64,000 nt of DNA, taken from assembly GCA_949825045.1 (NCBI GenBank), contig OX463836.1, forward strand, positions 10,557,829-10,621,828, written 5' to 3'. The notes below the pieces were generated by a model. That model saw only the letters and a list, made by a program, of their open reading frames with translations, had not been told where the DNA came from and ran no database searches. The position numbers and the translations under genes were made by a program. This DNA is from Argyresthia goedartella (lineage: Eukaryota; Arthropoda; Insecta; Lepidoptera; Argyresthiidae). Positions 20,410-36,268 of the stretch are shown here, piece by piece (position 1 is the first letter of the stretch; the number at the start of each line of letters is the position of its first letter).

Positions 20410-20415
20410 ACCATC
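20410..20415. repeat. Polinton target-site duplication, left copy
   Basis: ACCATC immediately precedes the left TIR and recurs exactly after the right TIR at 36269-36274. Six bases is the length expected for Polinton integration. Confidence 0.95.
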
Positions 20416-20937: not shown

Positions 20938-21067
20938 TTTTCAATATAATATCCTATTTTTAACTTACCATTTTTCTGCTCAGCTACACAAATGACTCTA
21001 CACTTTCACTTTGACAATGTAAATATATACTAAATAACAACTGAAAGGAAGCTGAAACATAAGATGT

Positions 21068-21145
21068 TTGTTTAGTCCGTCTTCCGGCTTATACCAGGTA
21101 GTTCTCCTTTCATGAACTACCCTAGTATCTAAACAACTACACCAT
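21068..21145. repeat. Stem-loop module, forward copy
   Basis: 'AGTCCGTCTTCCGGCTTATA' followed by hairpin GGTAGTTC-N9-GAACTACC. Same layout as the 111-bp repeat units but diverged. Its inverted partner lies at 22553-22605. Confidence 0.85.
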
Positions 21146-22448
21146 TAGTTTTCAGCAACACAGAGACCATCAATGCGTATTAATCCAAGAAATATGTTCG
21201 TTTTGTACTTATCCCAACCAGATCTGCTTTGTCTTTCTTGAAAGCCTGGTTCTTCAGGGAGTTTTGTAATCAAGGTGATCATAATTTAAAGGATTAACAA
21301 CACACGATGTGTCCACTAACTTCACTTCACATAAATAAATTTAAAATCTATTATTTAAAGTAAAATTTGGTGTTACCATCTTCTAAATGTTCCTTAACTG
21401 TTGCAACTTTTATCGAAATGAGACTATACAAAAACAAAACTTTAATGTTAAAGTGAGTTTGTAACGTTAACTGCACCAACTAGCACGCTGCAAGTATCAA
21501 ATATACTTCGCATGGTAAAGCGAGTCATTGAATCGTATAATATCCATGGTAAGTACAACGTATGTAAGTAAAGTACGTAATGTAACATATCATTAATGAT
21601 TATAGCTTTTACACGACACATTTTATGTGATGTTAGACGTAGGTATGATAGGGCTAGCTCATCGCCACAGTTACCAATGCCGGTTTTAATAAATTGTATC
21701 TGGTAACCCTAGTGTGATTTGCTTTCGTATAACAATGCAATCGATGACGGATGCCGGTCTCACGTTACCCGCTGGCGGTATTGTTTGTCATCACATTTAA
21801 TTGATTTTATTTTACCTCTATTATTTTTTGCATAGTCGCAAGTGTGCAAATTTATACAGGGTGTAAATGAGTATTATGTTGTAAATATAATTGAGTTTAT
21901 TTTTGCTAACAGCATAGGTTGTTGTTACTAGGTTAGGTATTTATTCTGAACAAGATTTCTGAAGGTATAACTGATAACGTAAATGAGTTATTTTATTTTT
22001 TATTTTTTTTCTTGTCCTATGAGTTGATTACTTATATCAAACGTAAGGAGTAAAACGTAAGTAATTAACTATTCTTATGATTATTTGTTCATTACACCGC
22101 AGTGAAGTTTTGTAAATATACATACCAGGAAAATATATTTATAGTTAAAATTAAAATGTTATGCATAGATAATGCTAATAAAACTTTCTCATGAATCTAG
22201 TTTTTCACGCCACTGAATAGGTATCGACAAACAATGACTTCATTATTACACCCTGTAAATTACTTGCATGCTCATCATTTATTTCCAATAAAACTGCCAA
22301 AATCGAAAGAAAAATTATCAATTACTTTTGTACCATTGTTGGTAGTAACACCAAGCTACAGACGTTCACGCTAGTGCTCGCGCTCCAGGTCCACCGCGCC
22401 CCGTCTTCATATCCCTGCTGCAAGCTGCGTATCCACTGCGTTACAATC
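21146..22448. other. Non-coding left arm of the Polinton
   Basis: No ORF is convincing. It is upstream of the plus-strand spliced gene, so it should hold that gene's promoter. The last 100 bp (about 22360-22448) is distinctly GC-richer than its surroundings, which would suit a 5' UTR or promoter region. A nested MITE is proposed at 21856-22256. Confidence 0.5.
21856..22256. mobile_element. Possible MITE nested in the Polinton left arm
   Basis: 'ACAGGGTGTAA' at the left and 'TTACACCCTGT' at the right are exact inverted repeats 401 bp apart, with AT-rich non-coding DNA between. No clear target duplication was found, so this is tentative. Confidence 0.4.
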
Positions 22449-24250
22449 ATGTCAGTAAGTTTTTTAAGTTATTTTTATAGACATAGTTCTTGACTAATTG
22501 TATGTTTTTTGTTTTGCATAGATGGTGTACAAAGCTTATAACTATTTGTTTGGATACTAGGGTAGTTCATAAAAGGAGAACTACCTGGTATAAGCCGGAA
22601 GACGGACCAAATAAGTAGTTATAACTTATTCGAAAAGCTTTATAACCTGTTTGAATGCAAGTGTAGTACGTAAAATGGGTACTACATTGTATTAGCCGGT
22701 AGACGGATCAAATGGGTTATAATAATCGAATATACCTATACCATGTAATTATTTGATATCTTACTAGTCTTTCCATGTCTTACGTTTTTACATTGTAACT
22801 AATTAATCTTAGGTACTGCAAGAGTGTTGGTAAGCTATATTCTAGTTTTATTTTCTCATTTACCTACATATGTACTTATTTTTATTTTTAGGTCGGACAC
22901 TGAGTACTACACGAAGAAGGCTGCGACTAATGAGAAGCGGAACTCGTTTGAAACGGACGACGAGGCTGCTTTCTTATGGTAAATATCATTATACCAGCTA
23001 TACGTATATCTTTATTATGCTCTCATAATATTACGTCACCCTGGTACTCACATAGACTATCATATTTTATTGTTAACAGCAACAAAAAGAAAGCCGCTAC
23101 AAAGTCAACAAAGCGTGTAGTCGAATCGGACGAGGAATCGGAGATTGTGAGGTAATTAACTTATTATTTTGAACTATAGATTTTGATAAATAACATTTTA
23201 CAAAATTGAAATATGCTACAGTGATGTTTATGTTTTCAGGAACAAAAGGAAGGTTCCCGCTAAGCCGACGGCATCAAAGCGTGTAGCCGAATCGGATGAG
23301 GAATCGGAGATTGTGAGGTAATTAAGTTTTTATTTTCAACGATAGATTTTGATAATTACATTCTACACAATTGCAATATGCTACAGTGATGTTTATGTTT
23401 TCAGGAACAAAAGGAAGGTTCCCGCTAAGCCGACGGCATCAAAGCGTGTAGCTGAATCGGATGAGGAATCGGAGATTGTGAGGTAATTAAGTTTTTATTT
23501 TCAACGATAGATTTTGATAATTACATTCTACACAATTGCAATATGCTACAGTGATGTTTATGTTTTCAGGAACAAAAGGAAGGTTCCCGCTAAGCAGACA
23601 TCATCGAAGCGTGCCGCCGAATCTGACGACGATACAGTACAAAGGTGAATATTTTTTGTGACTTTTAATACATGAATCCTAGTTCGAACCGAGCAGCAAG
23701 TATGAATAAAATAAGGCTATGTCACGACATATTATGTGTTTAGTTTTAACAGGGATTCTAAAATCTCTCTTTCTATATTTTTCTGTCAATATTTAGGTAT
23801 CTAGACGTCCAGTAAATAACTTTTGTTTTGTTTCACAGACGCAAACCGCAAAAGGACCTGAAGCCTCCAGCCAAACGCAAGGTGCAGCAGAGCGTTGTTA
23901 CTAAGAAGCCTGAAGAGAGTTGGCGCGCTTTGGATTCCGAAAGCGAGGACGAGGTGATCTGTAAGAAACCAGAGCTGAGGTCTTCATACTCGAAGCGGGT
24001 TGCCGACGGCGTCGTGCGGCGAAGTATTAAACTGGAGGGTGACCTCTACTTGGACCTGAAACTCTACCAGGTGGCGGATATCAAAGACGTGGAACCTCGC
24101 AAACGCTACGAGAAGGCGGTGCTGGCATTGAAGTATCAAGCTGACTTCAATTCACCACAACTGGGACTCCTGCGAGAGCTCTTAAAACTCTGCAAGACGT
24201 CTTTTACTGAAGAGGGATTTTTCTTCGGTGATAAGAAAAACTTAGATTAG
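22449..24250 (+). CDS. Spliced Polinton gene with amplified basic/acidic exons (unknown function)
   Basis: I propose eight exons: 22449-22454, 22813-22829, 22892-22978, 23080-23151, 23240-23317, 23405-23482, 23570-23644 and 23839-24250. They sum to 825 nt, giving 274 residues and a TAG stop. All introns obey GT-AG, and introns 2-7 are all phase 2. Exons 4-7 each encode a 24-26-residue repeat: a K/R-rich half ('NKRKVPAK', 'SKR') followed by an acidic half ('ESDEESEIV'), resembling nuclear localisation signals and CK2 sites. The last exon encodes about 137 residues, ending in a helical-looking domain around 'LYLDLKLYQVADIKD' and 'LGLLRELLKLCK'. I do not recognise the family. It lies just upstream of the polymerase on the same strand, so an early nuclear or DNA-binding role is a guess. 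Confidence 0.75.
22553..22705. repeat. Inverted stem-loop modules in intron 1
   Basis: At about 22560-22605 the reverse complement of the module at 21068-21145 occurs ('GGTAGTTC', loop, 'GAACTACC', then 'AAGCCGGAAGACGGACC'). At about 22654-22705 a reverse copy of the 111-bp-repeat module follows ('GTAGTACG' to 'GTACTAC', 'TAGCCGGTAGACGGA'). Together with the left copies the order is A-A-B...B'-A', a large imperfect inverted repeat about 2 kb across. Confidence 0.85.
23240..23644 (+). repeat. 165-bp exon-intron tandem units within the spliced gene
   Basis: Units start at 23240, 23405 and 23570 with an exact 165-bp period covering exon plus intron. Exons 5 and 6 differ by one synonymous base (GCC/GCT Ala) and their introns appear identical. 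Exon 4 with its intron (23080-23239) is an older, diverged unit, and exon 7 has a diverged 3' half. Confidence 0.95.
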
Positions 24251-24261
24251 ATTTATTGGTT

Positions 24262-24267
24262 AATAAA
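24262..24267 (+). terminator. Polyadenylation signal of the spliced gene
   Basis: AATAAA 12 bp after the TAG stop at 24248-24250. Confidence 0.7.
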
Positions 24268-24536
24268 ATTTATTTAATAAGTTTACTATGTTTACTTTAT
24301 AATTTATTAGGTAGGCAGGCATCCTTTATTGTAGGCCCCACGAAAGGTAGGTAGGTAGTAAAAATTAGGTGTAACTTAGGTACAGTCTTCACAAAATAAA
24401 AGGCTCGGTGACAGCGTCCGTGTCACTGACGTAATAAGGTTAAATTTAGTTTGGGCTACCGACCCTTTTATATTGTGGAGACTTTAGATAGGTTTTATTT
24501 ATCATTTCTTAGGTTTTGTCCTTACATATAATTAAG
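24268..24536. other. Intergenic spacer before the polymerase gene
   Basis: About 270 bp, AT-rich, with no ORF. 'TTTCTTAG' at about 24505 could be a splice acceptor for a 5'-UTR intron ahead of the polymerase ATG. Confidence 0.4.
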
Positions 24537-27500
24537 ATGTCTAATAATAGATTAGTATATTGTACATCCTGTGATGTCTCTGTAAAAAGTAAAAGTTTGT
24601 CAGCTCATTTGCGCAGCACTGTACACAAAAATAATAATGCTGTTATTAAGGGTGAGGGTCTTGAGAAGATATCCAGTGCTTTCCGCAGTCGAATCGCAAC
24701 GTACAGACTAAGCAACGTGGACTCGGGGGCGGCGGCGGGCGGCGCGGGCTCTAATGCTTGCCCTCCGAACATCTATCTGCGCTCGCTGCGGTCACGCGTA
24801 CGTGAGCTGATAGAGGCGCGGATCGGCTCCTTTAACAGCGTTAAGGTAAATTTTGAACTGTATGCTGAGTTCTCCTTACCTAAGAATGATGAACGGGAGA
24901 TTAAATCGTTCGCCACGCCCAATAAAGTGATTCACAAACATTATGATTTTGAAGATATTTACAAAAACGCTGTAAATTTGATTGTTGCAAAAATCGATGA
25001 ATTTCAGGAGAGAGACAGTGGTTGGAGTTTTGTAGCAAATTCGTATCTGGAAGTCAATATCAACAAATATAATCCACTAAGAGGTTCAAGGTTTATCGAT
25101 CTTCCTAGACCTATTAAATTAAAACGAGCGTGTGTCAATATTCAGAACTCAGATAATTTCTGTTTTCTATGGTGCATAATGGCCGCTTTATTTCCTGCAC
25201 AACAAAATTCACACCGAACGAGTTCATATCCTCATTTCGATACTGTGCTTAACACAAAAAACATGAAGTTTCCAGCAGGTTTCAGGGATGTAAAGATTTT
25301 TGAAAAGAATAACGATAACATAAGTATTAATATTTATGGTCTCAGTGAAAAGTCTGTTGTTGTAGGACCTTTATACAAATCTGTTCACAAGGGGCGGAAG
25401 CATCGTATAAATTTATTGTTTTTGGAATCGGGTGCGCTAACACATTATTGTCTTATTAAGGATTTGAGTAGGCTTGTAAGGTCTCAGATAACTAAACATG
25501 ATGGTAGAATATTTTTTTGTGATGATTGCTTGTTATTTTTTTCTAATGATAAAAAGCGTAATGAGCATGTGTGCAGTGGTGTTAAAACGTCATTGCCTGA
25601 TAAAGGGACATTGATACAGTTCAAACATTTCGAACGCATGCATGATATGCCATTTGTCATTTACGCAGATTTTGAGTCTATGTTACAACCCTGTTCGGAG
25701 AAAAACTCGAATTTTACGGAGTCGATTCAAAAACACGTTCCAGTAGCGTTCGGATATTATATTGTTTGCTCCTACGATGCGTCTTTAAATCGATATCAAT
25801 CATACCGAGGTCCGGACTGTATTCAACAGTTTTTAAAAATATTAGGCGAAGACGTTGAAACGATAAGTAAAATACTAAACGATCCTATCGACATGTTACC
25901 CCTTAATGAAAATGAGCTGAAAAACTTTTTAGAGTCGAAAAATTGTTACCTCTGTAATAAGTTAATGTTTGAAGGAAAGGTTAAAGATCATTGTCATTTG
26001 ACTGGACGCTACCGCGGGGCAGCTCATGATTATTGTAACCTTCGATTTAAGCTCCCTAAATCTTTCGTCCCAATTTTTTTCCACAACCTGTCAGGCTATG
26101 ACTGTCATTTGTTTATACGAGAGCTAGGTGAAATGCACGGAAACATAAATGTTATCGCAAGAACAAAAGAAAATTATGTGTCTTTTACAAAGTTCTTTCC
26201 TGTTAACAATAATGACTATATGGCTGTTCGTTTTGTTGACTCATTCGCATTTTTAGGTACTAGTTTAGAAAAAGTTGCAGAAAATTTAGTAATCGAAGAT
26301 TTTATCCACCTCTCTCGTTGCTACCCCGATAAACAGCAATTCGACTTATTGAGACGTAAAGGTATTTATCCTTACGAGTACATGAATAAATGGAAACGTT
26401 ATGATGAAAATAAATTACCTCCGCGTGAGTGTTTCTACAGCAGTTTAACTGATGAGGTTATTTCAGAGTCAGATTATGCTCACGCACAGTGTGTGTGGCG
26501 CTTATTCCATTTGTCAAACCTTGGTCAATATACCGATCTATACTTAAAATCAGATGTAATGCTGTTGACGGATATTTTTGAGAGTTTTAGAAAGACGTGT
26601 AAAACTAATTATAGGTTAGACCCAGCCTTTTACATAACGGCTCCCAGCTTAAGCTTCGATGCAATGCTGTTAAAAACAGAAGTAAAATTAGAATTAATAG
26701 ATGATCTGGAAATTATCAGAATGATACAAAAAGGTATTCGTGGAGGTGTTTGTTTATGTTCTACTCGCTATGCCAGTGCTAATAATAAGTACCTCTCGAA
26801 CTACAACCCCTCGAATCCTGATAATTACTTATTGTATATAGATTGTAATAATTTGTACGGATTTGCTATGTGTAGTTATTTACCACACTCTGATTTCGAA
26901 TTGATCGAAAATCCTGTGTTTCAAGTTTCTGACATTCTCTGTTTACAAGACAATTCAGATGTAGGTTACATTTTTGATGTCGATCTAGAATATCCTGAAT
27001 CTCTACATGATAATCATAACGATTTACCTTTCTGCCCACAAAAATTTGTACCGCCTGGATCTAAAACGAGTAAACTGATACCGAATTTGTATGACAAATA
27101 TAATTATGTTATGCACTATATTCATTTGAAAACGTGTCTGAAACATGGACTTAAATTAAAAAGCATACACAGAGTTATTAAATTTAAACAAGGTCCATAT
27201 TTGAAACAATATATTGATTTAAATACGGAATTGAGGCAAAAAGCTAAATCTCAATTTGAACAAGACTTTTTTAAATTATTAAACAATAGCATTTTTGGTA
27301 AAACCCTTGAGGATACGGAAAAAAGGTTAAATGTTAAATTAGTAAATCAGTGGTCTGATAAACATAACAAAACGAAAAAACATTTAGGCGCAGAGCAACT
27401 AATAGCTCGACCTAATTACCATAGCTCAACTATTTTTACTGAAAATTTTGTAGCGGTCCAGATGAATCCTGAAAAAATTACTCTCGATAAACCAATTTAC

Positions 27501-28076
27501 ATTGGTTTTTCTGTTTTGGAAATATCTAAGAGTCATATGTACGACTTTCACTATTCTGTTATGAAACCTTTTTATGGCCCTAATATAAAAATGTGTTACA
27601 CAGATACTGACAGTTTTCTGTATTCCATAACAACGAAAGATGTCTACAAAGACATAAAATACCATTTCCCTCAATACTTCGACACTAGCAACTACGCGTG
27701 TAATAATATGTATGGTATAAGGAGGCATAATAAAAAAGTGCCTGGGTTATTTAAAGATGAGCTAGGAGGTCAGCTTATAGTCGAATTTGTAGGCCTACGG
27801 TCTAAACTTTATTCCATAAAAACTGAAGATACTGAATTAAAAAAAGCTAAAGGAACCAAAAAATCTGTTGTGAAAACATTGAGTTTTAAGGACTATAAAG
27901 GTGTTTTATTAGATAATAATTTAGTTAGGAAAAAAAATATGGTATTCAGGTCATTAAAACATGAAATTTTTACACAGTCGCTTAATAAAATAGCTCTCTC
28001 AAGTAATGATGATAAGCGCATCATTCTAAAAAATAAAATATCAACTCTTTCATGGGGTCATGAATCAGCATTTTGA
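24537..28076 (+). CDS. Protein-primed family B DNA polymerase (Polinton PolB)
   Basis: Replicates the element, presumably from a protein primer at the TIRs. The start is the ATG at 24537 (1,179 residues); the frame is open slightly further 5' but without ATG. Features: a C2H2-like finger C9, C12, H24, H30; a 'DNFCFLWC' segment near 206-213 and 'THYCLIK' near 302-308; a second Cys pair C328/C331; ExoI 'YADFES' (Asp 378); an HNH/endonuclease-VII-like insert with C470, C473, 'DHCH' 484-487; ExoII 'HNLSGYD' from 516; ExoIII 'YLKSDV' (Asp 673); PolA 'DCNNLYG' from 769; PolB 'NNSIFGKT' from 916; PolC 'YTDTDS' (first Asp 1023). Exonuclease and polymerase active sites all look intact. The length is normal for Polinton PolB. 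Confidence 0.97.
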   Translation: MSNNRLVYCTSCDVSVKSKSLSAHLRSTVHKNNNAVIKGEGLEKISSAFRSRIATYRLSNVDSGAAAGGAGSNACPPNIYLRSLRSRVRELIEARIGSFNSVKVNFELYAEFSLPKNDEREIKSFATPNKVIHKHYDFEDIYKNAVNLIVAKIDEFQERDSGWSFVANSYLEVNINKYNPLRGSRFIDLPRPIKLKRACVNIQNSDNFCFLWCIMAALFPAQQNSHRTSSYPHFDTVLNTKNMKFPAGFRDVKIFEKNNDNISINIYGLSEKSVVVGPLYKSVHKGRKHRINLLFLESGALTHYCLIKDLSRLVRSQITKHDGRIFFCDDCLLFFSNDKKRNEHVCSGVKTSLPDKGTLIQFKHFERMHDMPFVIYADFESMLQPCSEKNSNFTESIQKHVPVAFGYYIVCSYDASLNRYQSYRGPDCIQQFLKILGEDVETISKILNDPIDMLPLNENELKNFLESKNCYLCNKLMFEGKVKDHCHLTGRYRGAAHDYCNLRFKLPKSFVPIFFHNLSGYDCHLFIRELGEMHGNINVIARTKENYVSFTKFFPVNNNDYMAVRFVDSFAFLGTSLEKVAENLVIEDFIHLSRCYPDKQQFDLLRRKGIYPYEYMNKWKRYDENKLPPRECFYSSLTDEVISESDYAHAQCVWRLFHLSNLGQYTDLYLKSDVMLLTDIFESFRKTCKTNYRLDPAFYITAPSLSFDAMLLKTEVKLELIDDLEIIRMIQKGIRGGVCLCSTRYASANNKYLSNYNPSNPDNYLLYIDCNNLYGFAMCSYLPHSDFELIENPVFQVSDILCLQDNSDVGYIFDVDLEYPESLHDNHNDLPFCPQKFVPPGSKTSKLIPNLYDKYNYVMHYIHLKTCLKHGLKLKSIHRVIKFKQGPYLKQYIDLNTELRQKAKSQFEQDFFKLLNNSIFGKTLEDTEKRLNVKLVNQWSDKHNKTKKHLGAEQLIARPNYHSSTIFTENFVAVQMNPEKITLDKPIYIGFSVLEISKSHMYDFHYSVMKPFYGPNIKMCYTDTDSFLYSITTKDVYKDIKYHFPQYFDTSNYACNNMYGIRRHNKKVPGLFKDELGGQLIVEFVGLRSKLYSIKTEDTELKKAKGTKKSVVKTLSFKDYKGVLLDNNLVRKKNMVFRSLKHEIFTQSLNKIALSSNDDKRIILKNKISTLSWGHESAF

Positions 28077-28094
28077 GCTGTATATGTATGAATA

Positions 28095-28245
28095 TAACTT
28101 GTCTCTAAACTATAGCTTGTAAGTGAATATTGTTTTAAAAATAAAATATCGTGCTTAGTGAATATTGTTTTAAAAATAAAATATGAATCAACATAGACTC
28201 TAAACTATAGCTTTTAAGTGAATATTGTTATATTAAAATAAAAAA
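28095..28245 (+). repeat. Duplicated 3'-end (poly-A signal) segments after PolB
   Basis: 'CTCTAAACTATAGCTT' occurs twice and 'AGTGAATATTGTT' three times, each time followed shortly by AATAAA or ATTAAAATAAA. The polymerase 3' UTR therefore carries about three tandem poly-A signals. Confidence 0.8.
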
Positions 28246-28559
28246 TGTGTTCTCGGATTATGTTTCGTGTTTCTTTTTAAGCTTAATGTTACAACATACC
28301 CTACTTAATGTCAGATATCAGCCGGAGTGGACTTGTATGTAGAGGTTAGGTACTTTAGAATGGTTTTCTAAAAGATGGAACATATCGCTTGAAAGCGATA
28401 ACGTTGAAATGATTATGATGACTAATCGCAACGTGAATATTGCACGTGTTGCGTTCAATGAACTCAATTTGAAAAATATAACAATATGTGCATATTAACG
28501 TAAGCAAAATTTTATTAAGAAATGCAAGATTAGGTGATTTGTTTTATTACAACGTGATA
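28246..28559. other. Spacer between PolB and the next plus-strand gene
   Basis: AT-rich. A 45-codon open stretch around 28355-28495 ('NVNIARVAFNELNLKN') ends at a stop just before a strong GTAAGC donor-like site (about 28500). It may be a 5' exon fragment, but no consistent splice could be built. Confidence 0.35.
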
Positions 28560-28733
28560 ATGACCATTTCTAAAGAAGGTAGCTTAAGAAGAGGACGCGG
28601 TTCATTACTCCAAGATTATGTCTATATTAAACGAGGTAAAACATACTGTTTATTTTTGGATGATTATTATAAAGTTTATTTTCGCAGTAAACTACATCAT
28701 GTTTTTTGTTTTACAGTCAATGGATCCCTCTGA
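28560..28733 (+). CDS. Small overlapping ORF, doubtful
   Basis: 57 codons starting 'MTISKEGSLRRGRG', with stop at 28733; the frame is open upstream to about 28488. Composition (basic N-terminal part, then 'YCLFLDDYYKVYF') looks protein-like, but it overlaps the start of the next gene in another frame. It may be a genuine small Polinton protein, a 5' exon, or chance. Confidence 0.3.
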   Translation: MTISKEGSLRRGRGSLLQDYVYIKRGKTYCLFLDDYYKVYFRSKLHHVFCFTVNGSL

Positions 28734-29076
28734 CTTGTGGTTCCAACACGCTCAGCCTCAAAATTATGACGACGTTCTGCAAGATTCTACACCCAGTCAA
28801 GACACCAAAGAAAAGAAAAAGAAGAAAAAGATGAGATTGGACAGAAATAAATTAAATCCGACAGTGTTGTCATCATACGTAATAACAAAGGCCCCGAAAA
28901 GACCTCTTCGTTTGATTAAGATAGAAATTTACGACTTAAATGGACCTCAGACTTGTACAGATGATAGTGTTGTAAGCGTACAGTACGTACAATCGGAAGT
29001 AGTAGATGAAATAATGGACTTGTCAGAGAATTTAGTGAATAAAATTTGTAAAAAAATATGCAATGATTCTATTTAA
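28720..29076 (+). CDS. Small basic Polinton protein, unknown
   Basis: From the ATG at 28720 (MDPSDLWF) it encodes 118 residues with a run of lysines ('EKKKKKKM') that looks like a nuclear localisation or DNA-binding patch, and an acidic C-terminal half. The frame is also open from an ATG at 28618. The extra 5' segment 28636-28716 begins GTAAAA, ends TTTTACAG and is 81 nt, so it behaves as an intron that leaves the frame unchanged; unspliced it would encode a strongly hydrophobic stretch. I do not recognise the family. It is the last plus-strand gene and converges on the late block. Confidence 0.6.
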   Translation: MDPSDLWFQHAQPQNYDDVLQDSTPSQDTKEKKKKKKMRLDRNKLNPTVLSSYVITKAPKRPLRLIKIEIYDLNGPQTCTDDSVVSVQYVQSEVVDEIMDLSENLVNKICKKICNDSI

Positions 29077-29079
29077 ATA

Positions 29080-29085
29080 AATAAA
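29080..29085 (+). terminator. Poly-A signal, plus-strand block
   Basis: AATAAA just after the TAA at 29074-29076, overlapping a second AATAAA at 29076. Confidence 0.6.
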
Positions 29086-29193
29086 ATTCACTATTAATTT
29101 ATTTTGATGTTTTATTTATGTACTTTAAGTCTTTAACCCTTGTGTAGTTTAAAGGGATGCTGAAATAAAATCAATAATTTAGGTAAACAAACA

Positions 29194-29199
29194 TTTATT
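29194..29199 (-). terminator. Poly-A signal, minus-strand block
   Basis: TTTATT on the plus strand (AATAAA on the minus strand), 60 bp beyond the stop of the last minus-strand gene. The plus and minus blocks thus end within about 120 bp of each other. Confidence 0.6.
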
Positions 29200-29258
29200 A
29201 TTAATCATTTTTTAAACTAATCGATAACACATACACTCATAAAACAAAAGTAAAATAA

Positions 29259-29747
29259 TTACATAGTTATTTGTTTATCTTTAAACCATTTTTTAATACA
29301 TAATACGTTTCTTAGAGCACAATTGGATTTGTGAGTTATACAACTGAAATCATTGAGATGTGATTTAAACATCTCAAACAACTGTTTTAAATTTGGACAT
29401 CCTTTTTCTTCTATGTTTATTATTGCACAGTTCTCACACAATTCTTTCAACCATTTTACCTTTTCTAAACCTTTAACTATTAAAAGTTTGTTCTCTAGAT
29501 ATGGTTTGATAATACTTTTGAACTGCAGAAAATCAACGTGTCCCTCACCCCATCTGTACCCGAGATTGTTTTCAATCCATTGTACACGTTTCTTTTCCAC
29601 TTCTGATAAATATCGATAAGGATACGGAGGCTTGATGAGAAATACTTGAGTGTATTCGGCTGTAGCCAACGCAAGTTCTTTAACAATGAAATCATTCTCA
29701 GCATTTTTAAAACCTTGTACGTCTACAAATAAAGTTTTTGTATTCAT
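29259..29747 (-). CDS. Conserved 162-residue Polinton-associated protein
   Basis: Starts 'LFVDVQGFKN' near residues 6-15 with 'VKELALA', 'FLIKPPYPYRYLS', 'WIENNLGYRW', a C-terminal third with several Cys, and 'CALRNVLCIKKW'. I recall many uncharacterised invertebrate and virus-derived proteins with the same 'D.QGF...KE' start and 'PP.P' motif, possibly an RNase H-fold nuclease-like domain, but this is recall, not a search. Its ATG overlaps the MCP stop as ATGA (29744-29747), so it is the last cistron of the late block. Confidence 0.75.
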   Translation of the reverse strand: MNTKTLFVDVQGFKNAENDFIVKELALATAEYTQVFLIKPPYPYRYLSEVEKKRVQWIENNLGYRWGEGHVDFLQFKSIIKPYLENKLLIVKGLEKVKWLKELCENCAIINIEEKGCPNLKQLFEMFKSHLNDFSCITHKSNCALRNVLCIKKWFKDKQITM

Positions 29748-30961
29748 GATAATTTTCTTACAATATTACTTAATGGTTTATATTCAATTAAACATTCATT
29801 CAGAATAAGACAATACGCCGACGTTTGATCAGGTATTTCTACTTCACTCTCGAGCTCTAGGCGTACATTAACCACCGGTCCAGATTTCAGATTATCGCTT
29901 TGTCTTGAACAGTCTATAACAAAAAGAGGAGCCAACTCTTTGAACTCTTTTGCACTCAACAATGGCTCAGTTCTTCTGCCGTAATAAGACTGCTGAAATC
30001 TAACGTATTGCTCGTATAATATAGCAATATTGTCGTTAGTAAAACTTACGTTCATATTGTCGTACGGAAAGTAGGTTGAGTTTAGATATACTTTTACATC
30101 ACGCAAATTACAATGATCGAATTGTGACATGTCTTTGTGAGCGTCGTTTTTGCGATTGGTCTGCAACCCTAGTATAACATATCGTGGTTTTTCAATCTGG
30201 GAAGATGTTTTGATTGACCATGTATGCTTTGTAGTTCTTGGCAGCAAGGGATATTCATACAAATCCCAATTTCTAAATGGTACTTGGATAGATCTATCCT
30301 TTTCCAACAATCGTAGAAGATTGATTCTTTCCGCGTCACTCACTTTTACATGTGGAACTCGCCATATAATTTTATGAATTTTTACGTCTTCTACGACTTC
30401 ACCGGTATTTAATTTTAGAGCATTCAGGTTTGTGTTACTGCGAAGAAGAACAAGTTCATGTTTGCAGTTGATTATAACTTTCTTATAATCTTCTGCAAAT
30501 CCTAGGATGTTACACAGAGGTATCGACGCTGAAAATTTTCCTGATTGCACGTTTTTCGTGCCATTGATATCCCAACCCCACGCTTTAGACATCTTTGACT
30601 CACTATCATTCATAGACAACAGTGACTTCATTGTAGTAGTAATTCCAGCGTTTTTAACCTTATCTACTTCAACTCCATTCAATTCATAACGAATATCTTG
30701 AAAAAAGTATAACAGCGGATTATTTGTAAACTGCACACTAGCAACCGTTTCCTTTGCAGCGTTCTTCGAAACATTGACGACACCTTCCAAATATAACGTG
30801 CTTGCCGATGGGAGTATGTACAGATCTTGTTGATTAATCGGTATACGAATTTCATCATTACGATTGAATGTAGTGACATAAGGTTTATACGAATGAATCT
30901 CAATACCATCAATGCTATTATCATAGACAGGCGCACTCAAAATATCTAGAATGTTACTCAT
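29744..30961 (-). CDS. Major capsid protein, double jelly-roll type
   Basis: 405 residues. Landmarks: 'YVTTFNRNDEIRIPIN' and 'LPSASTLYLEGVV' near the N-terminus, 'YFFQDIRYELNGVEVD' around 90-105, 'YVILGLQTNRKND' and 'CNLRDVKVYLNSTYFPYD' around 260-300, and 'YCLILNECLIEYKP' at the end. These match my memory of Polinton/adintovirus hexon-like capsid proteins, which form the trimeric capsomers of an icosahedral particle. Its ATG overlaps the stop of the preceding 47-residue ORF as ATGA (30958-30961). Intact. Confidence 0.88.
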   Translation of the reverse strand: MSNILDILSAPVYDNSIDGIEIHSYKPYVTTFNRNDEIRIPINQQDLYILPSASTLYLEGVVNVSKNAAKETVASVQFTNNPLLYFFQDIRYELNGVEVDKVKNAGITTTMKSLLSMNDSESKMSKAWGWDINGTKNVQSGKFSASIPLCNILGFAEDYKKVIINCKHELVLLRSNTNLNALKLNTGEVVEDVKIHKIIWRVPHVKVSDAERINLLRLLEKDRSIQVPFRNWDLYEYPLLPRTTKHTWSIKTSSQIEKPRYVILGLQTNRKNDAHKDMSQFDHCNLRDVKVYLNSTYFPYDNMNVSFTNDNIAILYEQYVRFQQSYYGRRTEPLLSAKEFKELAPLFVIDCSRQSDNLKSGPVVNVRLELESEVEIPDQTSAYCLILNECLIEYKPLSNIVRKLS

Positions 30962-31101
30962 GATAAAAGTCCAATTTGTTTAAGGAATTTTATATTTTTT
31001 GCAGTTAGTTTCTTCTTCTTCCAAGTCCTTTCCTTGTGAGAGATTGAAGTGTGACTAATCGTTTTTGGTAGTCGTGATAAGTTTTTATTAAAATCAATCA
31101 T
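30958..31101 (-). CDS. 47-residue basic protein between penton and capsid genes
   Basis: ATG at 31101, TGA at 30958-30960, 48 codons, exactly filling the gap between two virion genes and overlapping each by ATGA. The protein starts 'MIDFNKNLSRLPKT', has 'RTWKKKKLTAKN' and ends 'IKFLKQIGLLS'. It is strongly basic and would suit a DNA-condensing core peptide or a short capsid cement peptide; this is inference. The tail '(K)LT..N.KFL..(L/I)G' is one I recall from small Polinton ORFs. Easily missed because of its length. Confidence 0.75.
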   Translation of the reverse strand: MIDFNKNLSRLPKTISHTSISHKERTWKKKKLTAKNIKFLKQIGLLS

Positions 31102-31799
31102 TTTTTCTTAAGGTGTAAATACAGTTGAACTTCTTCACCACGTAAATTAATTAAATTATTCTTAATGTCCAATATCCTTACAGTTATGGTGCTTATGTTA
31201 TTTTGGTTTACGGGAAAATAAATAACGTTCTTTGGTATTTCTATTAACCTATAACCTGGTGGAACGTTAGGAGCAAACTCATGTATAATGTGACTTGATA
31301 TGCCATTTATATATGATCCACTCACTATATCACATTCTATTCTCACCACAGTTGTTGAAAGCATATTAACAGGATATTGTGATTCGTGTAATATATTAGC
31401 TTCAAGCGGTTGATTACCAAATCCTAACAAATTTCCTAGACTATTTTCTTTCTCAAAATGAATAGCTTTGTTGCTGATAATGTACGTTTTCAATGTATTA
31501 TTGTTGCATGATAAATTAAAGTTGATGTCTTGCAATTTTCCTTTCAGGTAGTCGTTTATATCTTGCAATTCGTATGTTCCTTCAGGAATTTCAATAACAT
31601 CATTTTCACCGTAATAAAACTTGTTATTTGTACTATCAACGTTTGGAATTGAATTAAAGGTAGATAGGTATAGCAGAGCGCACTCATATTCTCCCTCTAG
31701 TTGTAATGTAGGAGAATAATTCGTAATTAAAAGCGACGTATTGCCTGTTATTGATAGGGTGAATGACATTTTAACAATGGTGAAAATAAACGCTAACAT
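31098..31799 (-). CDS. Minor capsid (penton-like, single jelly-roll) protein
   Basis: From ATG 31799 it gives 233 residues; a second in-frame ATG at 31769 gives 223 ('MSFTLSITGN'), the more usual family start. Landmarks: 'YECALLYLSTFNSIPN', 'IEIPEGTYELQDINDYL', 'LGNLLGF', 'HIIHEFAPNVPPGYRLIE', 'VIYFPVNQ' and a C-terminal 'NLRGEEVQLYLHLKKK'. This is the Polinton penton-homologue pattern (vertex protein). The upstream ATG overlaps the protease stop as TGATG and the stop overlaps the next ORF as ATGA, which favours reinitiation and argues for 31799. Confidence 0.85.
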   Translation of the reverse strand: MLAFIFTIVKMSFTLSITGNTSLLITNYSPTLQLEGEYECALLYLSTFNSIPNVDSTNNKFYYGENDVIEIPEGTYELQDINDYLKGKLQDINFNLSCNNNTLKTYIISNKAIHFEKENSLGNLLGFGNQPLEANILHESQYPVNMLSTTVVRIECDIVSGSYINGISSHIIHEFAPNVPPGYRLIEIPKNVIYFPVNQNNISTITVRILDIKNNLINLRGEEVQLYLHLKKK

Positions 31800-32176
31800 C
31801 AATACTTTATATGTTTATTCCAAAAATCTTGCAAGTACTTTAAACATAAATGTCCACAGTTCACACTTTCATAAGTCTGATATCGAGTATAATTGTAATA
31901 CAAATTAGGAGTATTGAGATATTTCACAACTTCTACCGGCGGCTTCAAGTTTCCAAAGCTGTCAAAATATTCATAATAGTCTTTCAGTTTTATGTAGGCT
32001 ACCCAGTGTGTTCCGGCATTGTGCGAATCGTCTAAATTTATAATACCACATTCTATACTTCTTGGTTTTCGTGGTAAAGCATCTTTCATGTAAACTCCAC
32101 GAAAATATGGTATTTCTCTAGCATATTCGATGATATCTAAATTGGTCAGAGCACGCTTAGGCAGCCTGTTTATTAG
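31799..32176 (-). CDS. Adenain-like cysteine protease, -1 frame extension of the PLA2/pVI gene
   Basis: Maturation protease that should cleave virion precursors. The first ATG in frame (32089) lies inside the conserved domain: codons upstream of it encode 'ALTNLDIIEYAREIPYFRGV', which belongs to the family N-terminus. The frame opens at a TAA just before the A_AAA_AAC site and contains no ATG before 32089. Catalytic residues, numbered from that Met: His 28 ('GTHWVAY'), Asp 43 ('YFDSFG'), Cys 78 ('NCGHLC'), with Gln 71 as possible oxyanion residue. From the shift site it adds 125 residues to the upstream protein. Stop TGA at 31799-31801 overlaps the penton ATG. Confidence 0.85.
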   Translation of the reverse strand, partial: LINRLPKRALTNLDIIEYAREIPYFRGVYMKDALPRKPRSIECGIINLDDSHNAGTHWVAYIKLKDYYEYFDSFGNLKPPVEVVKYLNTPNLYYNYTRYQTYESVNCGHLCLKYLQDFWNKHIKY

Positions 32177-32904
32177 TTTTTTGATTTAATAAACAAGCCA
32201 CTACCTTTTTTGTAAGGTTTGATGTATAAGCCTCGACCCACTGAAATTGATTCCATCTTTTGATTGTGACGTTTTGATTCTCGCAAACTTTCTTGAGCAG
32301 CTTTATAATCATTAACACTTTTTGCTATTCCAGCTGCCCCTCCAGCAAGACTTCCTAAAGCAGACAACCCAGCAAAGATAGGTATTAAAGGAAGAAATCC
32401 TCCACTTTTAGGGAGAGGAATAATTCGTGGTATCCTTATGTTGTGTTTGGTATCTACATCAATTAACTTTTTGGCGACCGCATAAGCAACTTTAATAGCA
32501 CTATTACTATTTTTTGGTTTTAATTTCTGAAGATGACCTTTTATTTTAGATACCATATCTTTAAAACGTCGTACCCCAGACCCGGTTTTAAGTTTTGTCT
32601 TCATGACTTTATTAACCAACCAAGAAGCTATCTTTTCACCACGCTTAGCGTCTTTTGATCGTAGTCTCTGTTTTGTCATATTCAGTAAATCCAAATCAGC
32701 TTTATGTCGGTTTTCTAAATCAGAGAATTTCGTATACGCTATGTCGTGATGCATACATGCGTTGTCCAATAGATTGATGCCCTTATCTCCACGTGCTAGA
32801 CGCTTCACCAGCTTTGTTCCAGGACCACAATAATTATAGCCAGGTAGATGTAGCTCGATCGGTAAATTATTGATAAAACTGTTAATAAGACCTCCGCCAT
32901 GCAT
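32173..32904 (-). CDS. PLA2-domain / adenovirus pVI-like membrane-active protein
   Basis: 243 residues. The N-terminal domain has the phospholipase A2 calcium loop 'YCGPGT' (25-30) and the catalytic pair His53-Asp54 in 'CMHHDIAY', as in parvovirus-type PLA2 domains. A basic middle region follows, then a Gly/Ala/Leu-rich hydrophobic segment ('FLPLIPIFAGLSALGSLAGG', about 165-190) and a C-terminus with 'GLYIKPYKK' resembling the adenovirus pVI/pX type. 'MHGGG' at the start and 'LAGGA' inside fit the adenain cleavage pattern (M/I/L)XGG-X. Probable role: breaching host membrane during particle entry (family knowledge). The gene ends in the slippery A_AAA_AAC followed at once by TAA. Confidence 0.88.
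   Translation of the reverse strand: MHGGGLINSFINNLPIELHLPGYNYCGPGTKLVKRLARGDKGINLLDNACMHHDIAYTKFSDLENRHKADLDLLNMTKQRLRSKDAKRGEKIASWLVNKVMKTKLKTGSGVRRFKDMVSKIKGHLQKLKPKNSNSAIKVAYAVAKKLIDVDTKHNIRIPRIIPLPKSGGFLPLIPIFAGLSALGSLAGGAAGIAKSVNDYKAAQESLRESKRHNQKMESISVGRGLYIKPYKKGSGLFIKSKN
32176..32182 (-). promoter_or_regulatory. Predicted -1 ribosomal frameshift site (A_AAA_AAC)
   Basis: On the minus strand the heptamer AAAAAAC is in the correct phase of the PLA2/pVI frame (tcA AAA AAC TAA). A -1 slip enters the protease frame exactly (CTA ATA AAC...). The window between the -1 frame's upstream stop and the zero-frame stop is only about ten bases, and the heptamer fills it. I see no strong downstream hairpin by eye. 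Confidence 0.75.
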
Positions 32905-32930
32905 TACTGATAATAGACTAAGGTTATAGT

Positions 32931-33860
32931 TTATACCATTGCCTTTTTATCGATCCAACTATTTTGAGTTTCATCTAAACCTAACCATTTTACAAACAAC
33001 TTATTCCCCTTTTTTCTTATGACTTTTTCAATTAAATATACATCAGGATATTTGGTCTTCTGGAGTTCTTGATCATAAAAACTTCCTAAAATCGGTTGAC
33101 GACGACTATCTTCAATCAAATAAGTAACAGGAATCGTGTTGTTTACCTTCTTGATAAGAAATATTTCTGTCGACCAATTAGGCGTATAGCCTTTTTTAAA
33201 ACAGCTTTTGTATTTACTTATTCTTACGTTATCGCCAACACAAAATTTAGGTTTCTTAACGTGATTAGTTTTACTCTGGAACTTTTTGATATTGTCTAAT
33301 ACTTTGCTTGCATTTAACTTTGTTACTTTTGCAGGCTCCTCTTGCGTAACACGATGTTTTGTATGATTGTAAGAATGAACTACACTTTCTAATGGTTTAC
33401 CTAGCCACTTGTAACTACCTTTAAAAGAAAAATTCTTATAGAGATGTGCTTTTAATGTTCTGATTAATCTTTCCACTATGGATGCTTTTTTAACTGAATA
33501 TGTAGAATAGTGATTTATTTTGTAGGTTTTCATTAGTCTTTTGAATTCATCGTTGTAGAATTCAGTTCCCATATCTGTTTGTAGATTATTTGGTTGTCTT
33601 CTACTTTTCTGCAAGATGCTTTCGAAGACTTGACACATTTCTTGTTTAGATTTAGTTTTAAGAGGTACAGCCCACGCATATTTTGAGAAGCAATCAATAA
33701 CGACAAGAATAAACTTATAACCTTTATTATAAATTTTCAATGAAATAACATCTATCAAATCTGCCTGCCACAAATCATCAATTCCTTTGAGAAGCACTGA
33801 TCGACGAGAAAAATTTTTTCTTGCATTTTTATGTATTTCGTTTACCACCTGCTGCTTCAT
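32931..33860 (-). CDS. Retroviral-type integrase with C-terminal chromodomain
   Basis: 309 residues; it inserts the element and makes the 6-bp target duplication. Catalytic triad: Asp34 ('WQADLIDV'), Asp96 ('LQTDMGTEF') and Glu130 ('KASIVERLIRTLK'), with 33 residues between the last two. After the rve core comes a basic SH3-like region ('FCVGDNVRISKY') and a chromodomain at about 268-309 ('YLIEKVIRKKGNKLFVKWLG', 'SWIDKKAM'), likely for targeting chromatin marks. The ATG at 33860 is chosen because a stop lies just upstream in frame. It overlaps the preceding gene by 32 nt and is 26 nt from the next. Confidence 0.96.
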   Translation of the reverse strand: MKQQVVNEIHKNARKNFSRRSVLLKGIDDLWQADLIDVISLKIYNKGYKFILVVIDCFSKYAWAVPLKTKSKQEMCQVFESILQKSRRQPNNLQTDMGTEFYNDEFKRLMKTYKINHYSTYSVKKASIVERLIRTLKAHLYKNFSFKGSYKWLGKPLESVVHSYNHTKHRVTQEEPAKVTKLNASKVLDNIKKFQSKTNHVKKPKFCVGDNVRISKYKSCFKKGYTPNWSTEIFLIKKVNNTIPVTYLIEDSRRQPILGSFYDQELQKTKYPDVYLIEKVIRKKGNKLFVKWLGLDETQNSWIDKKAMV

Positions 33861-34185
33861 CTTTGTTCAACGATTTAATGATATTATCTAATTCACTCCT
33901 CGTATAAACATCCTTTATAAAGTTATTCAGCACTCCTTGTATATCTTTAATTGCTTCGTTCAGTAGAAATTGACAATCTTCCCGTAAATCTTTACTCTTC
34001 ATATCAACGTACTCCTTGTTTACGGCGTCGTCTGACTCTTGTGGTGCCTTTAAACCTTTTAATCGTGACGACTGAAGATCAAAAAGTCCTTCTTCGTTTT
34101 TGGTCAACGCATTGTCAGTAAAATCAAACAATTCAGATAAACGTAAACGTTTATGAACATGGTGACCGAATTTATCAATATTCAT
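33829..34185 (-). CDS. Small fibre-like protein with 'DAVNKEYVD' motif
   Basis: 118 residues. 'LFDLQSSRLKGLKAPQESDD' followed by 'AVNKEYVDMK' resembles the '(I/L).NL..P....DAV.K.YVD' repeat used to start trimeric coiled coils in phage tail fibres. The C-terminal half is charged and coiled-coil-like. A role as a spike or fibre on the particle is inferred from this motif only. It overlaps the integrase start by 32 nt. Confidence 0.7.
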   Translation of the reverse strand: MNIDKFGHHVHKRLRLSELFDFTDNALTKNEEGLFDLQSSRLKGLKAPQESDDAVNKEYVDMKSKDLREDCQFLLNEAIKDIQGVLNNFIKDVYTRSELDNIIKSLNKDEAAGGKRNT

Positions 34186-34266
34186 AGTACTGAGGTAGAT
34201 TACCCTAGTTATTTGTAGAGAGTTGAAGATGAAGTGCTCAAAATAATTTAAGTATGATTATTTATT

Positions 34267-35241
34267 CTAACCAAGCAAACCACTTTCTTTGAGTTCTTCT
34301 ATGATGGATATTATTTCATTATCAAGTCCAGTGTTTCCAGCGTCACGAGATGCTATAAGTAGTTTTAACCTATCCACTAGCTCATTTGGATCATCCCAGT
34401 AGACATAGTCTATATTTTTCTTCCATTTTTTTAGTACAGGTAAACCTGAACCTTGAACCTGATTGCTTTCACTATTGTCATGTTTATTAAATAGCGGTTT
34501 AATAATGTTTAAGTATTTTATTCCTTTGTTGCTTTTTACTGGTTTATTTGAGTCGTAATCTCGCCTATGTGCATTTGTCTCCAACAGCATTAACTTGTAA
34601 TTTGCCAAGTCTTCCTTTGTTATATCTGCCAAGTCTGGTAATTTTTTGGTTAGCAATTCCATCAAGCCTCGAGTCTTATTGTAATCAGATGTTCCTATTG
34701 TAATGGTTTTATCGGTGATATTTACATTCGCTGAGCCCATCAAAAGTTTTCCTCTTTCGACTCTTACTCCAAAAGGAGTATTCTTTAAATACTCCGATGT
34801 AAGCGACCATGATGAACAATTTTGGTTCTGAGTGTTTGCATCAGACTCAATCGAATTTTGAGATATATCAGATTCTTGTCCTTCATTAAAGTCGTTGTCA
34901 GAATCTTCGCCTTCCATTTCCGCTGCACGATCTAAGCTATGAGTAGGTGTCATAAATTGATCAGAACGTCTTATATTTCGTAAAGTGTCATCGGCTGCAC
35001 TCCGGTCAATGGAATCGTCGATTTCATTTTCAAATTTCGTCTCTCCATTTTTGATAGGACATGTTGTTTCTTTGCTCTCTGTTTGCCTCATAGCATCAGT
35101 AATTTTATTAAGGGGGCTAAGAACTGGTTTGAACACGTTTCCTATAGCTCTTTCATATTCTGATTCAACGTTACGCATTTTTTTAAACTTTTTCTTTACT
35201 GCTTCGGCAGCAGTTACGATTTCCTTTAAGTTATTTTCCAT
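34267..35241 (-). CDS. Conserved Polinton protein with C-terminal 'YWDDPNELVDRL' domain
   Basis: 324 residues from ATG 35241. The N-terminal part is a predicted coiled coil ('EAVKKKFKKMRNVESEYERA'), the middle is acidic and low-complexity, and the C-terminal half has 'TPFGVRVERGKLLMG', 'TRGLMELLTKKLPD', 'NYKLMLLETNAHRRDY', 'IKYLNIIKPLF', 'GSGLP' and 'DYVYWDDPNELVDRLKLLIA' to 'IISIIEELKESG'. I recall this C-terminal domain in many arthropod Polinton proteins and in a DUF (perhaps DUF8207; name from memory). Function unknown; possibly scaffold or tegument. The frame is open back to the ATPase stop without an ATG. Confidence 0.8.
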   Translation of the reverse strand: MENNLKEIVTAAEAVKKKFKKMRNVESEYERAIGNVFKPVLSPLNKITDAMRQTESKETTCPIKNGETKFENEIDDSIDRSAADDTLRNIRRSDQFMTPTHSLDRAAEMEGEDSDNDFNEGQESDISQNSIESDANTQNQNCSSWSLTSEYLKNTPFGVRVERGKLLMGSANVNITDKTITIGTSDYNKTRGLMELLTKKLPDLADITKEDLANYKLMLLETNAHRRDYDSNKPVKSNKGIKYLNIIKPLFNKHDNSESNQVQGSGLPVLKKWKKNIDYVYWDDPNELVDRLKLLIASRDAGNTGLDNEIISIIEELKESGLLG

Positions 35242-35325
35242 ATCTAAATAATATCTTGTATGCTCGTCCTCTTCTAAGCTAAGTGCTAAGCTATCGAATA
35301 AAACAGCATTTATATATACTTTCAC

Positions 35326-36012
35326 TCAGGTAAAAACGACGAACGTGTCAAACTGTTTACGATAGCACCCTTTATTTTTTTCACAATCTTTGTTTATGAC
35401 CAAGTAGCTATAAGAATCGTTCCATATTTTTGAACACATTTCTCGAAATTCGTTCCATGTCATATCCGTGTTAACATGTTCATCATATATATGTCGTAAA
35501 TTAATGTCATCTTGTTTAAAAAGTACAAGTAGGTTTGCATTGTCTCTAACAAGTTGTTTGGGTATTTTAGTATAAGTCTGGTTTAAATAAAAACAATCAA
35601 TATTTTTGTGTCTGCCCATTGCGAAATAATCACGCATGTTGTTTTGATTTTCACATGAGACATCATCAAATATAATTACTGAGTTTGATTGCGCTTCCTC
35701 CGTGCTGAGTACTTGCTGATTAGCATGGAATTTAAAGAACGATATACTCGGAACTAAACTTAAGACCTTCTCAAGAAATTCGTATTTTGGTTGATGTAAG
35801 GTTTTTGAATAAACGTAAATATTCTGGAAGTGGAGCCCGTTTTCATGTAATAGAAGACCGACCATCAGATTCGTTTTCCCGCAGTTTGACGGCCCGCATA
35901 TCAGACATCGTATGGAATTTGGTAACAGGTTACCATGGCGAAGTATTTTAGTTGAATCAGAAGTACATAATTTATCTAAGTGTAATGTACTTTTTTGTTT
36001 TAAAAATTTCAT
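35326..36012 (-). CDS. FtsK/HerA-type DNA-packaging ATPase
   Basis: 228 residues from ATG 36012. Walker A 'GPSNCGKT' at 40-47, Walker B 'VIIFDDVS' at about 112-119, and a conserved 'GRHKNIDCFYLNQTY' with a sensor-like Asn/Gln at about 140-150. This is the A32-like packaging ATPase of Polintons and NCLDVs, which would drive genome loading into the capsid. It is the first gene of the minus block, 130 bp inside the right TIR, so the right end must hold its promoter. Stop TGA is followed in the same frame by the open extension of the next gene. Confidence 0.93.
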   Translation of the reverse strand: MKFLKQKSTLHLDKLCTSDSTKILRHGNLLPNSIRCLICGPSNCGKTNLMVGLLLHENGLHFQNIYVYSKTLHQPKYEFLEKVLSLVPSISFFKFHANQQVLSTEEAQSNSVIIFDDVSCENQNNMRDYFAMGRHKNIDCFYLNQTYTKIPKQLVRDNANLLVLFKQDDINLRHIYDEHVNTDMTWNEFREMCSKIWNDSYSYLVINKDCEKNKGCYRKQFDTFVVFT

Positions 36013-36141
36013 ATTGAAATCGGTATGATTCACTTGGAAATCTGCATAAGACTACAAATATTTCGAATATTAATAACATTATATTGTGTAGCAGCCTGGT
36101 TCTGGATCAAGAATCATCCGACCCCGAACTTAGGCTCTACG
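36013..36141 (-). promoter_or_regulatory. Right subterminal region, probable promoter of the minus block
   Basis: About 130 bp between the ATPase ATG and the right TIR. AT-rich with 'ATATTCGAAATATT'-like palindromes near 36058-36070, no ORF. Its promoter role is inferred from position. Confidence 0.4.
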
Positions 36142-36268
36142 TCGTGAAATGAATTTGAACTGTCAATAGGTTTTTCGATCCATCTGTCGATAGGTTTTCG
36201 ATCCATCTGTCGAGCCCGTAGGCCCGAACGATCGTGAAGTGAATTTAAACTGTCATTATCTACCTACT
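36142..36268 (-). repeat. Polinton right terminal inverted repeat
   Basis: 127 bp, reverse complement of 20416-20543 except for one A fewer. Ends ...CTACCTACT at 36268. Confidence 0.95.

What the first reader, a model, noticed from the sequence alone, without database searches (positions are those of the whole stretch)
32170..32190. Canonical -1 frameshift site fuses the PLA2/pVI-like protein to the adenain-like protease
The protease domain clearly extends upstream of its first ATG (32089), and its frame is opened by a stop only about ten bases before the zero-frame stop. That tiny overlap contains A_AAA_AAC in exactly the right phase, followed at once by the zero-frame TAA. Termination would give the 243-residue structural protein; slippage would give a 368-residue form carrying the protease. 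This is retrovirus-like control of protease dose in a DNA transposon-virus. I do not know of a prior description.
Basis: partly seen in the sequence, partly recalled or inferred. Interest (0 to 1): 0.9.

Follow-up and report, generated by a model that had tools for sequence, protein, structure and literature searches.

The report
Frameshift-made protease in Polintons
A virus-like DNA element in this genome appears to make its capsid-processing protease by having ribosomes slip back one base at a short slippery sequence, the trick retroviruses use, and all but two of the related copies that we read in the same genome have kept that sequence.

Summary
On the minus strand the 243-residue PLA2-like ORF ends TCA AAA AAC TAA; the -1 frame opens after a TAA ten bases earlier and runs 125 codons past the slip as an adenain-fold protease (pLDDT 89.7; best PDB match adenovirus 2 proteinase). 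Its first ATG lies inside the first beta strand. The heptamer is conserved: 97 of 99 loci read in this genome keep it in phase. In 11 lineages (protease identity down to 53%) AAAAAACT is the only invariant stretch from -60 to +15 (ungapped, anchored on the heptamer). Of 240 PLA2-like homologues listed by two protein searches, 231 carry KN in the last six residues, and the residue before K always has an NNA codon (0 of 231 violations; 66 of 231 one residue upstream). In 21 of 93 loci (two lineages) the -1 stop abuts the heptamer. Programmed -1 frameshifting is the best explanation. Not shown: translation, efficiency, or a conserved RNA stimulator (two lineages share a weak pseudoknot candidate). 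This PLA2X-adenain fusion appeared in no paper searched; one preprint suggests a Hexon-Adenain analogue, and the main adintovirus paper could not be read.

The parts
32176..32182 (-). slippery heptamer A_AAA_AAC, in zero-frame phase (TCA AAA AAC)
   Evidence: conserved:
32173..32175 (-). zero-frame stop TAA directly 3' of the heptamer
   Evidence: stop directly after the heptamer in 85 of 93 loci
32186..32188 (-). -1 frame stop TAA that opens the protease frame
32173..32904 (-). zero-frame ORF, 243 aa, PLA2-like protein (CAP / PLA2X of insect Polintons), PF08398 E 5.6e-15
31799..32176 (-). -1 frame after the slip, 125 codons plus stop: adenain-like cysteine protease (His60, Asp75, Gln103, Cys110 counted from 32185)
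32087..32089 (-). first ATG of the protease frame (residue 33), inside the first beta strand
20416..36268 (.). whole Polinton element, 15,853 bp, termini AGTAGGTAGATAATGACAG in inverted orientation
20410..20415 (+). target-site duplication ACCATC, left copy (right copy 36269-36274)
29744..30961 (-). major capsid protein ORF, double jelly-roll (PF21738 E 3.6e-110)
32931..33860 (-). integrase ORF (rve E 8.3e-13) with a chromodomain match below Pfam's cut-off
35326..36033 (-). packaging ATPase-like ORF (Pox_A32 E 1.3e-5)
24516..28076 (+). 1186-aa ORF in the place of the Polinton DNA polymerase; only an endonuclease VII-like stretch was recognised

Best explanation
Programmed -1 ribosomal frameshifting makes the capsid-maturation protease. 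Most ribosomes that translate the PLA2-like virion protein terminate at TAA directly after A_AAA_AAC (243 aa). A minority, with tRNA-Lys and tRNA-Asn on AAA AAC, slip back one base, read CTA instead of meeting TAA, and add 125 residues, giving a 368-residue PLA2X-protease fusion. The fusion would carry a small dose of protease into the assembling particle, as Gag-Pro does in retroviruses, and presumably releases itself during maturation. Shown by sequence: site, phase, frames, predicted fold, deep nucleotide-level conservation. Inferred: that ribosomes slip, how often, packaging by fusion, and self-release.
For: (1) Exact canonical site in a 10-base overlap. (2) DNA level: the heptamer lies in the protease frame in 97 of 99 loci of this genome, window included: 93 of the 94 that my motif caught plus 4 of the 5 it missed (seen). 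The two without it are L044 (its PLA2 match is also broken) and L092, both A_AAA_TAC. Many loci are near-identical copies; by lineage, 11 of 11 representatives keep it (I chose the representatives, and left out decayed L092). (3) These lineages have pairwise protease identities of 53-91%; from -60 to +15 around the site only AAAAAACT is invariant (ungapped, so upstream columns beyond the first indel are not aligned; the gapped alignment of 11 sequences also has AAAAAACT as eight consecutive invariant columns). Of 46 (protease) and 36 (PLA2-like tail) invariant residues in seven lineages, 5 and 5 use a single codon; the final AAA and AAC are among them, although Asn is AAC only 33% and Lys AAA 78% of the time in the element. 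(4) Protein level: KN within the last six residues in 231 of the 240 homologues listed (of 2388 and 604 found); the residue before K never lacks an NNA codon (0 of 231; control position 66 of 231; one row per cluster below 65% identity 0 of 15 against 8 of 15). (5) 13 of 25 protease homologues that extend 6 or more residues upstream of the LP block show KKL at the fixed place where AAA AAA CTN would be read. (6) A start at the first ATG would lose helix 15-21 and most of strand 28-33; 72 of 93 loci (7 of 11 lineages) have no ATG before the FRGV block, and in 21 of 93 (lineages H and K) the -1 stop touches the heptamer. (7) A_AAA_AAC is named among the most shifty heptamers on mammalian ribosomes (PMC5009743, passage).
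Against: No downstream stimulatory structure is shared: folding z-scores between -1.4 and +1.3 in nine representatives, -0.7 to +0.9 in five, -0.7 for a 97-nt window stretch. A home-made pseudoknot scan found weak candidates in 4 of 9 (window and L040 with a similar second stem, each reached by 2 of 40 shuffles; L051 3 of 40, L046 6 of 40) and none in 5 of 9. Nine of 240 homologues lack KN in the last six residues; three of them keep KN further in. 12 of 25 extended protease homologues do not have KKL at that place. Lineage B has TAATG and lineage F an upstream ATG in the protease frame, C and D an ATG in the helix, so there a separate start is conceivable. No RNA, ribosome or protein data. 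All DNA evidence comes from one genome.
Confidence: 0.9

Rival explanations
1. The protease is translated separately, from an internal or non-AUG start (termination-reinitiation at the stop, e.g. TAATG in lineage B, or leaky scanning).
For: Lineage B has an ATG overlapping the stop; lineage F has an ATG 21 codons upstream of the heptamer; C and D have one 17 codons after it; many database protease models begin with Met next to the junction.
Against: The ATG is not conserved, the heptamer is: 72 of 93 loci (7 of 11 lineages) have no ATG before the FRGV block; 27 of 120 listed database protease models start within or after the LP block, 13 of them at the equivalent of Met33 (a gene caller's choice, so only suggestive). 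Reinitiation does not explain why NNA AAA AAC is frozen in phase while the flanks vary.
Confidence: 0.05
2. A spliced transcript joins an upstream exon to the protease frame.
For: An AG (AAACAG) lies just 3' of the site in the window.
Against: The stretch before it is A-rich, without a pyrimidine tract. The AG is not conserved: lineages E and F have CGG in its place. In lineages H and K the -1 stop abuts the heptamer, so an acceptor would have to lie in the few variable codons between it and the domain. The frozen heptamer stays unexplained. No transcript was examined.
Confidence: 0.02
3. Transcriptional slippage on the A run puts a fraction of mRNAs in the protease frame.
For: All intact sites are runs of 6 to 8 A (66, 6 and 21 of 93 loci with 6, 7 and 8 A).
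Against: Six A is a short run for this (recalled); the run is followed by an invariant C and lies in the phase X_XXY_YYZ whatever its length. A polymerase would not need that phase or the C.
Confidence: 0.03

Closest known systems
Retroviral gag-pro -1 frameshifting (beta- and deltaretroviruses)
   Same: A -1 frameshift at the end of a structural gene appends the maturation protease; A_AAA_AAC is, from recall, the heptamer at MMTV and bovine leukemia virus gag-pro (no call shows those letters).
   Different: Here a DNA virus/transposon with an adenain-fold cysteine protease; the zero-frame partner is a PLA2-like protein, not the shell protein; no shared stimulatory structure was found.
Predicted slippery sites in adintovirus Penton ORFs and potential 'Hexon-Adenain (Hexain)' fusions (PMC11071296, 2024 preprint; passages read)
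   Same: Same virus group in the wide sense, -1 frameshifting suggested, one case joining adenain to a virion protein.
   Different: KnotInFrame predictions for Penton and Hexon, no conservation evidence in the passages read; PLA2X-protease is not mentioned there ('PLA2' has 0 occurrences).
[quoted passage not shown] passages read)
   Different: Described as separate ORFs; the two mentions of 'frameshift' in that paper concern errantiviruses.
Adenovirus adenain with its pVI C-terminal cofactor peptide (PMC4246237 and PMC4740752, starts of abstracts in the search listing only)
   Same: A virion protein tail and the protease are linked for activity.
   Different: In adenovirus the link is a cleaved 11-residue peptide; here it would be a translational fusion. 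Analogy only.

Membership tests
Programmed -1 ribosomal frameshift cassette | X_XXY_YYZ heptamer in zero-frame phase | tested here: met
Programmed -1 ribosomal frameshift cassette | -1 ORF overlapping the zero frame and encoding a conserved protein | tested here: met
Programmed -1 ribosomal frameshift cassette | nucleotide-level conservation of the site in divergent relatives | tested here: met
   DNA from one genome only
Programmed -1 ribosomal frameshift cassette | downstream stimulatory RNA structure (common, not universal; recalled) | tested here: inconclusive
   no structure shared by the lineages; window and L040 have a weak pseudoknot candidate with a similar second stem; long-range elements not tested
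Programmed -1 ribosomal frameshift cassette | transframe product detected | not testable with these tools
   needs reporter, ribosome profiling or mass spectrometry
Polinton/Maverick (adintovirus, Eupolintoviridae) | AGT-type termini, inverted repeats and 6-bp target-site duplication (6 bp recalled; AGT in a PMC8097293 passage) | tested here: met
Polinton/Maverick (adintovirus, Eupolintoviridae) | integrase, double jelly-roll capsid protein, packaging ATPase, adenain | tested here: met
Polinton/Maverick (adintovirus, Eupolintoviridae) | protein-primed DNA polymerase B | tested here: inconclusive
   1186-aa ORF of the right size and place, but only an endonuclease VII-like stretch was found and no PDB match
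Adenain / peptidase C5 | fold and catalytic His, Asp/Glu, Gln, Cys | tested here: met
   Foldseek 1nln E 4.0e-6, TM (query) 0.74; His60, Gln103, Cys110 in 28 of 28 rows, Asp75 in 25 of 28 (their catalytic role is recalled); Pfam C5 matched weakly in 21 of 28 rows, not in the window's own

The most novel reading that the evidence does not exclude
In a large clade of animal Polintons the maturation protease has no start of its own and is made only as a frameshift fusion to the PLA2X/pVI-like protein: an independent DNA-virus invention of gag-pro control that outlived even loss of the PLA2 domain (lineages H and F), in which the fused tail may also play the role that the pVI peptide plays for adenovirus protease.
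Probability: 0.5. Interest if true: 0.85.

Novelty: new variant of a known kind. Interest (0 to 1): 0.8.

Why it matters
[quoted passage not shown] A frozen frameshift signal that doses a capsid protease is a specific, easily tested sign that these elements were selected to make particles; it would correct the gene model of PRO in a whole family, and it is a convergent case with retroviruses.

Tried and rejected
Chance heptamer: rejected by conservation. Separate ATG, splicing, transcriptional slippage: see rivals. Hairpin or pseudoknot 3' of the site: none shared. DNA from other species: viral contigs, genome contigs and phages gave no Polinton of this kind; L061 is from another virus group, with a 119-aa PLA2-like ORF and no protease ORF beside it in the 4.3 kb held. 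So the DNA evidence is from one genome; other species enter through protein ends only. The model of the PLA2-like protein was too poor to use (mean pLDDT 56.5). Literature: eight searches on frameshifting or these viruses listed no paper on a PLA2-protease frameshift; I opened passages of 12 papers (PMC5803895, PMC8097293, PMC11071296, PMC5009743, PMC8310308, PMC12567637, PMC8363768, PMC4028283, PMC11071308, PMC10120064, PMC12721341, PMC9683012), none read whole; most listed papers were not opened. The adintovirus paper of 2021 (10.1093/ve/veaa055) is not held and unread. A regular expression of mine missed five loci; I counted these. Of the 335 FRGVFMR places 38 were read.

Full report
What was claimed. 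A -1 frameshift site A_AAA_AAC fuses a PLA2-like protein to an adenain-like protease in a Polinton. I checked the site, its context, and its fate in relatives.

The site. On the minus strand the ORF 32904-32173 ends ...AAA TCA AAA AAC TAA TAA. In frame -1 a TAA at 32188-32186 is followed by ATC AAA AAA CTA ATA AAC AGG CTG... and stays open to 31802. Between the two stops lie ten bases, which hold the heptamer at 32182-32176.

The element. Termini AGTAGGTAGATAATGACAG in inverted orientation at 20416 and 36268, flanked by a perfect 6-bp duplication ACCATC, with integrase, double jelly-roll capsid protein, ATPase-like and PLA2-like ORFs. It is a Polinton of 15,853 bp. The polymerase ORF could not be confirmed by profile or PDB sequence search.

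The protease. The window's own -1 frame matches nothing in Pfam above cut-off, but 21 of 28 family rows touch Peptidase_C5 weakly, the family profile finds adenovirus proteinase in the PDB at 1.2e-5, and the predicted structure (pLDDT 89.7) matches adenovirus 2 proteinase (E 4.0e-6, TM 0.74) and the adenain of a turtle adintovirus (E 4.4e-8). His60, Gln103 and Cys110 are in 28 of 28 rows, Asp75 in 25. The first ATG codes residue 33, the last residue of strand 28-33; a start there would lose helix 15-21 and that strand, including family-invariant columns.

Relatives in the same genome, DNA level. A protein search scored 150 of 686 candidates: 58 at 100% (the window included), 21 at 99%, 71 at 79-89% identity. 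A second query and a pattern for FRGVFMR (335 places, 0 in the reversed control) brought in more distant lineages. I read 98 loci and the window. The heptamer sits in the protease frame in 97 of 99; L044 and L092 carry a T in the run. Most loci are copies of a few families, so lineages matter more: 11 representatives (A-K) with pairwise protease identities of 53-91% all have NNA AAA AAC in the zero frame, with TCA, GCA, CAA, ATA, ACA or AAA as the first codon. Between -60 and +15, ungapped, the only invariant bases are AAAAAACT; tail length and residues vary upstream and the linker varies downstream. Only 5 of 46 and 5 of 36 invariant residues keep one codon in seven lineages, the final Lys AAA and Asn AAC among them.

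Entry into the -1 frame. Upstream of the heptamer the -1 frame is open for 0 to 22 codons. In lineages H and K (19 and 2 of 93 loci) it reads TAA AAA AAA CTA, the stop touching the heptamer: the frame can only be entered there or later, and no ATG follows before the FRGV block. In 72 of 93 loci, 7 of 11 lineages, no ATG precedes that block. Lineage B has TAATG (8 loci), C and D an ATG inside the helix (7 loci), F an ATG 21 codons upstream (6 loci). So starts come and go and the heptamer stays.

Other species, protein level. Two searches with PLA2-like proteins (2388 and 604 hits, the best 120 of each listed, no overlap) show KN within the last six residues in 231 of 240, directly before the stop in 225. 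The nine others: P0314, P0328, P0347 keep KN before a longer tail; P0311, P0337, P0343 end KKKK, KKKD, KKKKL; P0252, P0351, P0359 lack it. The residue before K is never one without an NNA codon, 0 of 231, against 66 of 231 at the residue before that; one row per cluster below 80% identity 0 of 125 against 39 of 125, below 65% 0 of 15 against 8 of 15 (rows without KN, 3 and 1, are outside these). This is a nucleotide signature seen through protein. Of 120 listed protease homologues, 27 models start within or after the LP block, 13 at the equivalent of Met33; of 25 that reach at least six residues upstream of that block 13 have KKL exactly where AAA AAA CTN would be read, 12 do not. Named members include CAP of Spodoptera frugiperda and PLA2X of 'Spodoptera moth adintovirus 2'.

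A telling detail. In lineages F and H the zero-frame ORF is short (158 and 161 aa) and lacks the PLA2 domain; in H the integrase ORF ends about 100 bases upstream, so the domain is gone; for F the PLA2 query matched only from residue 106 on. Tail and heptamer are kept. The conserved point is therefore the C-terminal half and the protease, not the lipase.

Mechanism. Slippage of tRNA-Lys and tRNA-Asn from A AAA AAC is the standard reading of such a site; A_AAA_AAC is named among the most shifty on mammalian ribosomes (PMC5009743, passage). A stop directly 3' of the heptamer in 85 of 93 loci may matter for the pause; this is inference. No hairpin or pseudoknot is shared; window and L040 have a weak pseudoknot candidate with a similar second stem, reached by 2 of 40 shuffles each, and five of nine representatives have none. 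Either the efficiency is low, which would suit a protease, or a distant element acts. Packaging of the protease by fusion and its self-release are inferred by analogy with Gag-Pro.

Known or new. Frameshifting is known and so are Polinton CAP and PRO genes (PMC5803895, passages). Eight literature searches listed no description of this fusion; PMC11071296 (passages) comes nearest with predicted slippery sites in Penton and potential Hexon-Adenain fusions. In the passages opened of PMC10120064, PMC12721341 and PMC9683012 'frameshift' means error, search setting or decay. The 2021 adintovirus paper was not available. I file it as a new variant of a known kind.

Noticed in passing
genome G000: At least 58 copies, the window included, encode an identical protease segment and 21 more differ slightly: a sign of a very recent burst of this Polinton.
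   Followed up: partly
L052, L062; P0241-P0267: Some Polinton lineages have lost the PLA2 domain but keep the C-terminal half of the protein and the frameshift tail.
   Followed up: partly
window 32239-32176 (minus strand): The tail GRGLYIKPYKKGSGLF of the PLA2-like protein is strongly conserved just before the frameshift site; a possible protease cleavage or cofactor segment.
   Followed up: no
window 20416-20935 and 22537-22725: Complex subterminal repeats: pieces of the terminal inverted repeat recur on the left, and there is a second inverted set inside.
   Followed up: no
L061 (IMGVR_UViG_3300046323_000841): A viral contig with a 119-aa PLA2-like ORF and no protease ORF next to it in the 4.3 kb held.
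   Followed up: partly
window 24516-28076: The 1186-aa ORF in the polymerase position carries an endonuclease VII-like stretch (residues 474-509) and matched no polymerase family by profile.
   Followed up: partly
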